NCBI GenBank assembly: GCA_021414305.1
Contig: JAIOOS010000012.1
Coordinates: 124,001 to 188,000 of the forward strand
Reading direction: 5' to 3'
From: Burkholderiales bacterium
GTDB lineage: Bacteria > Pseudomonadota > Gammaproteobacteria > Burkholderiales > Burkholderiaceae_C
DNA: 64,000 nucleotides
Both the position numbers and the translations under genes were made by a program. Each line of letters opens with the position of its first letter. Positions within the stretch are counted from its first letter, which is position 1. The notes beneath the pieces are model-generated. The model was not told the origin of the DNA. It worked only from the letters and a program-made list of their open reading frames with translations, and did no database searches. This document shows positions 14,440 to 33,802 of this stretch, in pieces.

Positions 14440-14471
14440 ATGGTCTGCAGAGGGCGTTGCGGGGTCGTTGC
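14440..14471 (-). promoter_or_regulatory. SARP-type direct-repeat promoter, site 1 (barrel/lipoprotein operon)
   Basis: Read on the minus strand: GCAACG (14471-14466), 5 nt, GCAACG (14460-14455), 9 nt, then -10-like GACCAT (14445-14440). The repeat period is 11 bp. A transcript would start near 14433, leaving ~16 nt before the ATG at 14417. Four other promoters in the window have the same spacing. Confidence 0.75.
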
Positions 14472-14541
14472 GGCGTTCCCGGCGGCCACGTCATGTCGAC
14501 GGCAGGGGCGTTGCGGCCCGGTCGGCGCGGCGGCGGAGGCA

Positions 14542-14587
14542 TGTCCGTAGAATGCGGACACGGGCGCTCCTGGAAGCGCCCGTTTTT
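14542..14587 (+). terminator. guaC leader: -10-like element and terminator-shaped 5' hairpin
   Basis: CGGGCGCT (14561-14568) and AGCGCCCG (14575-14582) form a perfect 8-bp stem with a 6-nt loop followed by five T (14583-14587), i.e. an intrinsic-terminator shape only 26 nt before the guaC ATG and in its direction. Just upstream TGTCCG/CGGACA (14542-14547, 14555-14560) flank TAGAAT, a good -10 hexamer at 14548-14553. If that -10 is used the mRNA would begin with the hairpin, which could then stabilise the 5' end rather than terminate. If transcription starts further upstream it would be an attenuator or a terminator of upstream read-through. Confidence 0.6.
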
Positions 14588-14612
14588 GCGTCTGCGCGAA
14601 AGGCGGCGAGCC

Positions 14613-15590
14613 ATGGAAATCTTCGACTACGACAACGTCCTGCTGCTGCCCCGCAAGTGCCGCGTCGAGAGCCGCGCCGAGTGCGACCCCTCGCAGGAGT
14701 TCGGCCCGCACCGCTTCGCCCTGCCGGTGGTGCCGGCGAACATGAAGACCGTGGTCGACGAGCCGATCACCGAGTGGCTGGCGGCCAACGGCTTCTTCTA
14801 CGTGATGCACCGCTTCGACGTCGACAACGTCGCCTACGCGAAGTCGATGCGCGGCAAGGGCCTGTTCGTCTCCATCAGCTCGGGCGTGAAGCCGCCCGAC
14901 TACGAGGTGATCGACCGCCTGGCGAGCGATGGCGTCGGCGCCGACTACATCACCATCGACATCGCCCACGGCCACGCCGACACCGTGCACCGGATGATCG
15001 ACCACATCAAGAAGAAGCTGCCGAAGACCTTCGTCATTGCCGGCAACGTGGCCACGCCCGAGGCGGTGATCGATCTCGAGACCTGGGGAGCCGATGCCAC
15101 CAAGGTCGGCGTCGGCCCGGGCAAGGTCTGCATCACCAAGCTGAAGACCGGCTTCGGCACCGGCGGCTGGCAGCTTTCGGCGCTGAAGTGGTGTGCGCGC
15201 GTCGCGACCAAGCCGATCATTGCCGACGGCGGCATTCGCGACCACGGCGACATCGCCAAGAGCGTGCGCTTCGGCGCGAGCATGGTGATGATCGGCTCGC
15301 TGTTCGCGGGCCACGAGGAGTCGCCGGGCAAGACGGTCGAGGTCGACGGCAAGCTGTTCAAGGAGTACTACGGCTCGGCCTCCGACTTCAACAAGGGCGA
15401 GTACAAGCACGTCGAGGGCAAGCGCATCCTCGAGCCGATCAAGGGCCGGCTCGAAGACACGCTGCGCGAGATGAAGGAAGACGTGCAGAGCTCGATCTCG
15501 TACGGCGGCGGCACCAAGCTCGCCGACATCCGCAAGGTGAACTACGTCATCCTGGGCGGCGACAACGCCGGCGAGCACCTGCTGATGTAG
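14613..15590 (+). CDS. guaC: GMP reductase (GuaC type 2)
   Basis: A 325-residue enzyme that converts GMP to IMP with NADPH, linking guanine and adenine nucleotide pools in the cytoplasm. The IMPDH/GMPR barrel is complete: N-terminal YDNVLLLPRKC, PANMKTVVDE, the phosphate loop and catalytic cysteine in GVGPGKVCITKLKTG (Cys173), and IIADGGIRDHGDIAKSVRFG. The length matches the Bacillus-type short GuaC (~326) rather than the E. coli type (~347), and no CBS domains are present, which argues against IMP dehydrogenase. The start at 14613 is the first Met that begins the family's usual N-terminus. It is an isolated housekeeping gene inside an accessory region. Confidence 0.93.
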   Translation: MEIFDYDNVLLLPRKCRVESRAECDPSQEFGPHRFALPVVPANMKTVVDEPITEWLAANGFFYVMHRFDVDNVAYAKSMRGKGLFVSISSGVKPPDYEVIDRLASDGVGADYITIDIAHGHADTVHRMIDHIKKKLPKTFVIAGNVATPEAVIDLETWGADATKVGVGPGKVCITKLKTGFGTGGWQLSALKWCARVATKPIIADGGIRDHGDIAKSVRFGASMVMIGSLFAGHEESPGKTVEVDGKLFKEYYGSASDFNKGEYKHVEGKRILEPIKGRLEDTLREMKEDVQSSISYGGGTKLADIRKVNYVILGGDNAGEHLLM

Positions 15591-33102: not shown

Positions 33103-33136
33103 GGTCGTGTCTCTGATGAAGCGTGAGGGGGCGCGC

Positions 33137-33730
33137 TCAGAAGCGGGCGACGAGGCCGAGGCCGAACGTCGCCAGGTTGCCGTCCTGGCCGGCGACCTTG
33201 CCGCGCGTGAGCTGGGCGTCGACGCGAAGCGCCAGGCGCGCATCGAGCGGGTACTCGAGGGCCACGCCGGCGAGCGGCTGCACGGTGGTCTTGCCGGCGT
33301 TCGGGCCGCCGCCTGCGCGCGCCTTGAAGTCGCCGTCGACCGCCGCCAGGCCGGCGCGCAGCTCGAGCTGCGCGTCGCCGACCGGCATGCGCCAGGTGGC
33401 GGCGGCGCCGAACACGTTGAAACCGAGATCGCCGCCGTAGTCGACGCCCGACGCGGTGCGGTCCGAGCCGCTGTAGCGGCGGGTGCCGGTCCACGACAGT
33501 CGCGCGCCCCATTGCCGGTCGAAGGCGCGGGCCACCGACAGGCCGTAGGCGTAGCCGCTCCGGTCGCAGGGCAGCGCGTCGACCTCGCAGACGACCCGCA
33601 GGCGCGCCGCGCCGCCTTCGATGCCGACCGACCAGGGGCCCGGGATGGCGGTCTGCGCGTGCGCGCCCGATGTCAGGGCGATGCCGGCGAACGCGAGAAG
33701 CCGCAGCGCGGGCGCAAAGGTGAATCCCAT
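33137..33730 (-). CDS. Outer-membrane beta-barrel protein, paralogue of 13788-14417
   Basis: A 197-residue protein: signal peptide ending GAHA, mature N-terminus with VGIEGGAARLRVVC...LPCDRSGYAYG, then amphipathic strands (WGARLSWTGTRRYSG, AQLELRAGLAAV, VQPLAGVALEYPLD) and the C-terminal Phe (FGLGLVARF) typical of outer-membrane proteins. It shares the C-x(4,5)-PCDRS motif and the late K(T/S)T(V/A)QPLAG(V/L) strand with the barrel at 13788. The start at 33730 has GGAGAG 6 nt upstream. First gene of the operon with the Ig lipoprotein, and divergent from regulator 3, with SARP-type site 5 between them. Confidence 0.8.
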   Translation of the reverse strand: MGFTFAPALRLLAFAGIALTSGAHAQTAIPGPWSVGIEGGAARLRVVCEVDALPCDRSGYAYGLSVARAFDRQWGARLSWTGTRRYSGSDRTASGVDYGGDLGFNVFGAAATWRMPVGDAQLELRAGLAAVDGDFKARAGGGPNAGKTTVQPLAGVALEYPLDARLALRVDAQLTRGKVAGQDGNLATFGLGLVARF

Positions 33731-33770
33731 GAAGCTCTCCGATGTGAAGTCGAACCCGACGACCGGAGGA

Positions 33771-33802
33771 ATGCTGCGCAGACCCCGTTGCGGGGCCGTT
33801 GC
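33771..33802 (-). promoter_or_regulatory. SARP-type direct-repeat promoter, site 5 (second barrel/lipoprotein operon)
   Basis: Minus strand: GCAACG (33802-33797), 5 nt, GCAACG (33791-33786), 9 nt, CAGCAT (33776-33771). Regulator 3 starts 27 bp away in the other direction, so a protein bound here could control both. Confidence 0.75.

What the first reader, a model, noticed from the sequence alone, without database searches (positions are those of the whole stretch)
14440..33802. Five SARP-type promoters with identical geometry in a betaproteobacterium
At 14440-14471, 20178-20209, 24978-25009, 26774-26805 and 33771-33802 (all minus strand) the layout is GCAACG, 5 nt, GCAACG, 9 nt, -10-like hexamer. 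The period is 11 bp. If the unit is a heptamer, the second ends 8 bp before the -10, which is the geometry reported for Streptomyces SARP activators. All five stand in front of envelope or secreted-protein operons, beside three SARP-like regulator genes. A full SARP regulon with its operator in this phylum is to my knowledge undescribed.
Basis: partly seen in the sequence, partly recalled or inferred. Interest (0 to 1): 0.93.

Follow-up and report, generated by a model that had tools for sequence, protein, structure and literature searches.

The report
SARP switch regulon beyond actinobacteria
Five identical tandem DNA boxes in this betaproteobacterial window sit at one fixed distance before promoter-like sequences, beside three genes for relatives of the Streptomyces antibiotic switches (SARPs) that likely bind them; boxes of the same layout lie beside such genes in other betaproteobacteria and in the heat-loving bacterium Meiothermus, mostly in front of genes for exported proteins or for small uncharacterised proteins that are likely one family.

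Summary
Confirmed. The window holds exactly five GCAACG-N5-GCAACG dyads, all minus strand, each followed after 9 nt by xAxxxT. They fit SARP (BTAD) operators, and the pattern extends beyond the window. The dyad lies in 11 of 15 Burkholderiales loci encoding homologous BTAD proteins, in 0 of 27 other BTAD loci; of 27 sites, 26 have xAxxxT at offset 9 and one at offset 8. The predicted N-terminal fold matches AfsR and EmbR best. A second SARP in this genome lies beside two TGACGC dyads of the same layout, the genome's only two. Four Thermaceae genomes carry 4-6 TAACGC dyads each in this layout; reversed-pattern controls give 0. Site-driven genes mostly encode exported proteins or a 61-79-aa protein, often ending in GLR. 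Leaving out three query members, 5 of 15 such genes found in Deinococcota by similarity have an exact operator upstream, against 1.7% of random windows. Binding and activation are untested. The open-access searches made showed no description of such operators here.

The parts
14440..14471 (-). predicted SARP operator-promoter 1: GCAACG-N5-GCAACG-N9-GACCAT
   Evidence: 28 nt (-10 to ATG) before 13788-14417
20178..20209 (-). predicted operator-promoter 2, -10-like GACCAT, between divergent SARP-1 and small ORF 1
24978..25009 (-). predicted operator-promoter 3, -10-like TACCGT, before small ORF 2
26774..26805 (-). predicted operator-promoter 4, -10-like TAACGT, just after the SARP-2 stop codon
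33771..33802 (-). predicted operator-promoter 5, -10-like CAGCAT, between divergent SARP-3 and the beta-barrel gene
20290..23832 (+). SARP-1: BTAD regulator, 1180 aa, helix RRNLRRELARLR
   Evidence: BTAD hit (G000:C6:144593); start by homology
26839..30459 (-). SARP-2: BTAD + AAA_16, 1206 aa
   Evidence: Pfam; fold match to AfsR and EmbR
33829..37401 (+). SARP-3: BTAD + AAA_16, 1190 aa
   Evidence: Pfam (scanned as 33799-37401); start by homology
24746..24946 (-). small ORF 2, 66 aa, ...SPFELARF...GIR, predicted beta-beta-beta-alpha
19953..20171 (-). small ORF 1, 72 aa, ...SPFELARF...GLR (GTG start, uncertain)
13788..14417 (-). outer-membrane beta-barrel protein, target of site 1
   Evidence: Pfam OMP_b-brl within the longer ORF 13788-15974
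33137..33730 (-). outer-membrane beta-barrel protein, target of site 5
   Evidence: Pfam OMP_b-brl
30553..33102 (-). Ig-like lipoprotein-type protein, co-oriented between site 5 target and SARP-2
   Evidence: (Ig_3, scanned as 30553-33243)
25021..26712 (-). exported protein (signal peptide judged from the translation), target of site 4
   Evidence: no Pfam family
23873..24736 (-). exported protein downstream of small ORF 2
19356..19910 (-). exported protein downstream of small ORF 1
18507..19343 (-). exported protein, looks like a paralogue of 23873-24736
   Evidence: similarity read from the translations
11153..13771 (-). NHL-repeat lipoprotein-type protein downstream of the site 1 target
   Evidence: Pfam NHL

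Best explanation
The five GCAACG-N5-GCAACG-N9-xAxxxT elements are likely activator-dependent promoters, each predicted to be bound by a side-by-side dimer of the large SARP proteins encoded beside them. Shown by sequence: the tandem repeats are one helical turn (11 bp) apart and end 9 nt before a weak -10-like hexamer, with no other conserved upstream element, so the first repeat lies where a -35 would be. Shown by comparison: this layout follows this SARP subfamily through Burkholderiales, and other SARP subfamilies lie beside other hexamers in the same layout, in this genome and in Deinococcota. Inferred: each BTAD winged helix binds one repeat with its RRNLRRELARLR helix, and the dimer holds sigma region 4 at the poor promoter, as AfsR does on afsS. 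Inferred: the three paralogues share one operator because their recognition helices are identical. Inferred: the targets are exported proteins and a small beta-beta-beta-alpha protein often encoded next to the regulator, as afsS is next to afsR. The input signal, presumably read by the AAA and C-terminal part, is unknown.
For: Exact motif 5 in window, 11 in genome. Window plus 15 Burkholderiales BTAD loci: 27 sites at spacing 5, while any other spacing from 0 to 30 gives at most 2 per set; GCAACG is the top hexamer (with its complement CGTTGC) in an all-hexamer scan; 0 in 27 non-Burkholderiales BTAD loci; xAxxxT at offset 9 in 26 of 27 and at offset 8 in 1 of 27. Family survey of 399 genomes: all 5 genomes whose best match to the three-SARP profile exceeds 900 bits have at least 2 full-pattern hits; 14 hits in 13 genomes without such a locus compare with 16 reversed-pattern hits, i.e. 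background. The recognition helix is identical in the three window proteins and in the relatives whose N-terminus was aligned, apart from V for A in L145 and the second L142 gene, F in L124 and D and F in L122; L143 and L149 were not examined for it. Fold: AfsR 8k60 TM 0.71, E 1.2e-9, with EmbR equal in E; profile to EmbR 9e-15 and AfsR 2e-10. Other cases: TGACGC dyads beside another SARP here and in two other genera; TAACGC dyads in Thermaceae. AfsR geometry and sigma adaptation: PMC10936776, passages.
Against: No binding, transcript or start-site data. Four of 15 Burkholderiales loci show no exact site in the fetched flanks (L141, L148, L150, L161); L148 and L150 are cut by contig ends and the L161 gene is frame-broken. 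Six of the 11 exact dyads of the genome are far from the three SARPs. Ten other BTAD neighbourhoods in this genome show no recurring dyad of this kind. Of 14 TGACGC hits in other genomes only 2 have a SARP within 1.5 kb. A profile made from this subfamily found no SARP within about 1.5 kb of the 20 Thermaceae and Trueperaceae TAACGC elements looked at, although four of them lie just behind a SARP gene when read over longer stretches. An OmpR/PhoB-type response regulator would use the same geometry.
Confidence: 0.86

Rival explanations
1. The dyads are boxes for an OmpR/PhoB-type response regulator, which also reads two direct repeats one turn apart just upstream of a -10; the SARP genes are neighbours by coincidence or are themselves targets.
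For: The geometry of PhoB-type boxes is the same (recalled), and the review PMC10972967 (passages) notes that AfsR and PhoP bind overlapping repeats. Some genome sites are far from SARP genes.
Against: The motif follows the SARP subfamily across genera and is at background in family genomes without it. Different SARP subfamilies lie beside different hexamers in the same layout. Response regulator genes themselves were not surveyed.
Confidence: 0.09
2. The elements are ECF-sigma promoters whose -35 resembles GCAACG.
For: ECF -35 elements often contain an AAC core (recalled).
Against: The repeat is strictly doubled at 11 bp and the second copy lies too close to the -10 for a -35. The hexamer is xAxxxT, not a GTC-type ECF -10. 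ECF genes were not searched for systematically; the one ECF-like gene I noticed (L141 11942-12373) is in a locus without a site.
Confidence: 0.02
3. Chance or codon-bias artefact in a 72% GC genome.
For: GCAACG is commoner on the minus strand (69 against 29); with up to 2 mismatches the motif is at background.
Against: Simulations give 0.043 exact dyads per window and none with the -10. 10 of 11 genome sites are outside called genes, and the layout is kept across genera in front of different target genes.
Confidence: 0.01

Closest known systems
AfsR-afsS, Streptomyces coelicolor (large SARP with NOD and TPR; PMC10936776, PMC10972967, passages seen)
   Same: N-terminal fold; two 11-bp direct repeats overlapping the -35; suboptimal -10 (CACTGT there; CACAGT at 2 of 27 sites here); 3' repeat about 8 bp from the -10; a small-protein gene as direct neighbouring target.
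   Different: Operator sequence (CGTT(T/C)ATCG there, GCAACG here); AAA_16 called by Pfam; the small protein here is a predicted beta-beta-beta-alpha protein that was not compared with AfsS by any search; targets here are exported proteins rather than antibiotic pathway activators.
PimR and SARP-LAL regulators (PMC5930380, passages seen)
   Same: SARP N-terminus on a large ATP-binding C-terminus; heptamer CGGCAAG shares GCAA with GCAACG; 4-nt spacers (11-bp period); at least two repeats needed; sometimes three, as in L122.
   Different: Actinobacterial; PimR's main operator does not overlap the -35; controls one PAS-LuxR gene.
EmbR, Mycobacterium tuberculosis
   Same: Same winged-helix plus BTAD fold.
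   Different: FHA domain instead of AAA and C-terminal part (PMC10936776 passage); different targets (recalled).
PhoB/OmpR boxes (recalled)
   Same: Two direct repeats one turn apart just upstream of the -10.
   Different: Receiver-domain regulators without BTAD; no known linkage to these loci.

Membership tests
SARP (large SARP) | N-terminal OmpR-like winged helix followed by BTAD | tested here: met
   Pfam BTAD in SARP-2 and SARP-3 by full-protein scan, all three by genome scan; model of SARP-2 matches AfsR and EmbR first; sequence profile.
SARP (large SARP) | Additional NTPase module | tested here: met
   AAA_16 in SARP-2 (E 5.7e-17) and SARP-3 (E 9.5e-15); SARP-1 aligned over its full length, not scanned on its own.
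SARP (large SARP) | C-terminal TPR domain | tested here: inconclusive
   Pfam called no TPR; weak profile match to the RapJ TPR, E 0.002.
SARP (large SARP) | Operator of direct repeats spaced 11 or 22 bp, 3' repeat about 8 bp from the -10 | tested here: met
   27 sites at 11 bp against at most 2 per set for any other spacing; -10-like hexamer 9 nt after GCAACG, i.e. 8 after a heptamer GCAACGS.
SARP (large SARP) | Direct binding to the operator and transcription activation | not testable with these tools
   needs gel shift, footprint, in vitro transcription
SARP (large SARP) | Regulates antibiotic biosynthesis (typical, not defining) | tested here: not met
   Site-driven genes read here encode beta-barrel, exported or PEP-CTERM proteins and a small protein.
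OmpR/PhoB response regulator box | Two direct repeats with 11-bp period upstream of the -10 | tested here: met
   same geometry
OmpR/PhoB response regulator box | Presence independent of SARP genes | tested here: not met
   At background in family genomes without the SARP subfamily.

The most novel reading that the evidence does not exclude
A regulatory module shared by distant phyla: a large SARP, a two-repeat operator whose hexamer changes with the recognition helix, and a dedicated small beta-beta-beta-alpha protein with a GLR or GIR tail, together switching sets of exported and surface proteins in Burkholderiales and Deinococcota. The small protein is an AfsS-like partner that feeds back on the regulator, for instance by docking its tail on the C-terminal repeat domain.
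Probability: 0.35. Interest if true: 0.9.

Novelty: new variant of a known kind. Interest (0 to 1): 0.82.

Why it matters
SARPs are described mainly as antibiotic switches of actinomycetes. Here their promoter geometry is found intact in Gram-negative Burkholderiales and in Deinococcota, attached to exported proteins and an uncharacterised small-protein family. In the three subfamilies seen, hexamer and recognition helix differ together while the spacing stays fixed. That makes a DNA-recognition code for SARPs testable, and operators of the many uncharacterised BTAD proteins (16 matches in this genome; 9-26 in each of five Deinococcota genomes) could be predicted by scanning for tandem hexamers in this frame.

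Tried and rejected
Up to 2 mismatches: background, not informative. One-mismatch genome scan: 75 sites, 64 beyond the exact ones; only 19 of these 64 were viewed in sequence, and none was taken as a site. Reversed-pattern control for the bare dyad: useless because GCAACG is its own mirror; used only with the -10 attached. Near-site search in loci without exact sites: one convincing 1-mismatch site (L124, beside its BTAD), nothing in L141, L150, L161; L148 had one 2-mismatch hit not taken as a site. Dyads beside SARPs with intermediate helices (L125, L126, own L016/L018): none found. A regular expression for small proteins, run over the window and the L117-L134 and L137-L178 loci, found only L146. 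Pfam for the small protein: one non-significant hit in five members, E 0.13. Foldseek for the small protein: nothing below E 0.3. Profile comparison of the Burkholderiales and Meiothermus small proteins: 37% probability, E 3.6e-4, so homology is called likely, not shown. The A5 profile contains three Meiothermus proteins (L206, L213, L219) that were picked because of their operators, so their return as L233-L235 is circular; they are left out of the 5 of 15 count. Dyads in Chloroflexi (L171 CTGAGA twice, L156, L160, L166) and Trueperaceae (CAAACG) were seen but not controlled. Two paired GCAACG sites in G401 (L129), with no strong SARP match in that genome, are treated as background.
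Full report
OBSERVATION. The five 32-mers exist as described. The exact dyad GCAACG-N5-GCAACG occurs five times on the minus strand and never on the plus strand; no other spacing shows a comparable excess. Simulated windows contain 0.043 dyads on average and none with the -10-like part in 300 runs. Allowing two mismatches drowns the signal (21 found, 17.8 expected). The genome (5.28 Mb, 30 contigs) holds 11 exact dyads. Apart from the window's five, three are co-oriented and intergenic before exported or membrane-type genes with xAxxxT at offset 9 (C4:130183, C7:248513, C7:252999); one precedes a short lysine-rich protein with the same spacing (C15:35915); one is intergenic without xAxxxT (C8:47410); one is inside a coding sequence (C7:38490). 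Gene calls are my own script's; exported means a hydrophobic N-terminus read from the translation.

GENES. Three large BTAD proteins lie in the block: 20290-23832(+), 26839-30459(-) and 33829-37401(+). Pfam calls BTAD plus AAA_16 in the two scanned as full proteins, and the genome scan finds BTAD in all three. SARP-1 and SARP-3 are 41% and 39% identical to SARP-2, and all three share the helix RRNLRRELARLR. Sites 1, 4 and 5 directly precede exported proteins, two of them OMP beta-barrels. Sites 2 and 3 directly precede ORFs of 72 and 66 aa that resemble each other (VELRLVVW...WRA...EREF.SPFELARF...G[LI]R) and are followed by exported-protein genes. This corrects the statement that all five stand in front of envelope operons. 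Site 5 may also read through into SARP-2, which is co-oriented behind its two targets (inference).

RELATIVES. A scan of 84,980 species genomes with the three-protein alignment gave 42 loci, 15 of them Burkholderiales (Roseateles toxinivorans, Aquabacterium terrae, Rubrivivax pictus, Rubrivivax sp. A210 and MAGs). 11 of the 15 carry the exact dyad, 22 sites in all, most within about 2.5 kb of the SARP gene. With the window this makes 27 sites. In an all-hexamer scan for HEX-N5-HEX the top hexamer is GCAACG (27, with its complement; next 18, a GC palindrome); in the 27 non-Burkholderiales loci GCAACG scores 0. After the site, A and T four bases apart stand at offset 9 in 26 of 27 and at offset 8 in one; other offsets give 0-3. 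L137 and L138 are close relatives, so not all sites are independent. In a survey of 399 genomes of the family, all five genomes with a profile match above 900 bits have two or more full-pattern hits (9 in this genome, 2 in each of the others). 14 hits in 13 further genomes compare with 16 hits of the reversed pattern outside this genome, i.e. background; the last hit is in G016, about 20 kb from a frame-broken SARP. In G254 and G171 a syntenic SARP is found with and without the neighbouring exported gene, and the site goes with the gene. The five same-genus genomes have no full-pattern hit.

STRUCTURE AND LITERATURE. The model of SARP-2 residues 1-250 (pLDDT 90.6) matches AfsR in its transcription complex (8k60, TM 0.71) and EmbR before all others. 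AfsR binds two 11-bp repeats centred at -29.5, overlapping the -35, on a promoter with a suboptimal -10 CACTGT, and holds sigma region 4 there; SARP repeats end 8 bp from the -10 (PMC10936776, passages including the abstract). A logo over 37 sites shows GCAACG[GC]C repeats (GCAACG fixed by the search), A in 36 and T in 35 of 37 at the -10, and little else upstream. 10 of these 37 were listed with the -10 already known, and the two genome dyads without it (C7:38490, C8:47410) were left out, so the unbiased figure is the 26 of 27. The PimR heptamer CGGCAAG shares GCAA (PMC5930380, passages). In searches 41, 43-46, 49, 62, 100 and 101 of PubMed Central open-access text (listings only, apart from the passages cited; two returned nothing) I saw no description of a SARP operator in Betaproteobacteria or Deinococcota; most subscription journals are not covered.

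A GENERAL RULE. A scan for any hexamer in this frame that recurs within a neighbourhood covered the window, 11 other BTAD neighbourhoods of this genome and six further stretches fetched for other GCAACG sites. It found only GCAACG with its one-base-shifted forms (window and L047) and TGACGC twice. The two TGACGC dyads are the only ones with this layout in the genome. They lie on the opposite strand in front of another large SARP (C7, helix RGNLRQRLAVLRQ); one precedes a 71-aa ORF and the other an 811-aa lipoprotein-type protein. In 200 family genomes the TGACGC pattern has 14 hits in 12 other genomes against 2 in the control. Two of those 14 lie divergent from a SARP with helix RGNLRQRLLKLR within the 1.5 kb examined; the other 12 have none there. 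All four Thermaceae SARP loci (three of them Meiothermus) carry TAACGC-N5-TAACGC-N9-TAxxxT just behind the SARP gene. Their genomes hold 6, 5, 6 and 4 TAACGC elements with xAxxxT (TAxxxT in 19 of 21), a Trueperaceae genome 3, a Chloroflexi genome 0, and reversed controls 0 in all six. Of the 20 elements whose flanks I read (24 hits in all), 14 precede a lipoprotein, exported protein or small protein of the family below; two precede an aminotransferase-like gene, and the rest other ORFs or none close by.

THE SMALL PROTEIN. Over 32 Burkholderiales sites read for targets (the 27 plus five in L119, L120, L122), 12 precede the small protein and 19 an exported protein (two of these 19 share one gene); one runs off its contig (for window 20193 and L149 the script chose the exported gene behind the small ORF). 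Strong matches among 398 family genomes occur in four genomes, all of them among the five with the SARP and the sites; two others have weak ones, E 2e-6 and 3e-6; only 15 candidates per genome were scored. The protein database holds 257 relatives at E 0.01; none of the 120 listed has a function or a Pfam domain. The predicted fold is beta-beta-beta-alpha (confident from about residue 11 to 50) with no significant PDB match. In five Deinococcota genomes the profile finds 18 genes. Three of these were rows of the profile and had been chosen for their operators. Of the other 15, 5 have upstream an exact tandem hexamer with period 11, N9 and TAxxxT (L236, L237, L244, L245, L247), and 8 have one with at most one mismatch (one, L242, looks like chance), against 1.7% and 6.6% of random windows from the same loci (binomial 3e-6 and 2e-6). 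L236 is an orthologue of the three left out, and L244 and L245 look like orthologues, so these are not all independent. With the three included the figures are 8 and 11 of 18. The hexamers are TAACGC, TAACGG, TAACGA, GAACGG and TGACGC. 11 of the 18 genes lie within 8 kb of a BTAD match on the same contig, but only 2 of these 11 (L237, L247) have an exact operator upstream; most of the operators stand at small genes away from a BTAD match. Some Deinococcota members (for example F.SPLEL...FGIR in L247 and L248) look intermediate to the Burkholderiales form.

MECHANISM. Most likely a SARP dimer binds the dyad, replaces the missing -35 by gripping sigma region 4, and activates exported-protein genes and the small gene. 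The architecture SARP - operator - small gene resembles afsR-afsS, where the adjacent small gene is the direct target (PMC10972967, passages). Binding, activation, the signal and the role of the small protein are not shown.

Noticed in passing
L179 6284-6555 and 6593-9970 (own genome, contig 7): A second large SARP with its own pair of TGACGC-N5-TGACGC-N9-TAxxxT elements, the only two in the genome, before a 71-aa ORF and a lipoprotein-type protein.
   Followed up: yes
L142 11879-12517, L145 5922-6605 and 7161-7775, L147 11607-12983: Four of ten scanned target-block proteins carry PEP-CTERM sorting signals above the curated cut-off, suggesting that in Rubrivivax relatives the regulon feeds the exosortase route.
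   Followed up: partly
window 15629-16114 and 19356-19910; 18507-19343 and 23873-24736; 13788-14417 and 33137-33730: The target-block genes look like paralogous pairs by reading their translations, as if the block grew by duplication together with its three SARPs.
   Followed up: no
L129 6458 and 13363: A genome without a SARP match of this type at the cut-off used has two full GCAACG elements 7 kb apart, one before a Dps-like gene (name from reading the translation).
   Followed up: partly
L171 5018 and 7908: A Chloroflexi SARP locus has two near-identical CTGAGA dyads with TATCAT at the same spacing, one just upstream of the SARP match.
   Followed up: no
window 51078-61492: A run of genes that may be an aryl-polyene or fatty-acid-type cluster (carrier protein, ligase, dehydratase, exporter-like gene), judged only from reading the translations.
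   Followed up: no
window 61509-61910 and 62023-62436: Two tandem, similar small exported proteins of unknown function (from translations).
   Followed up: no
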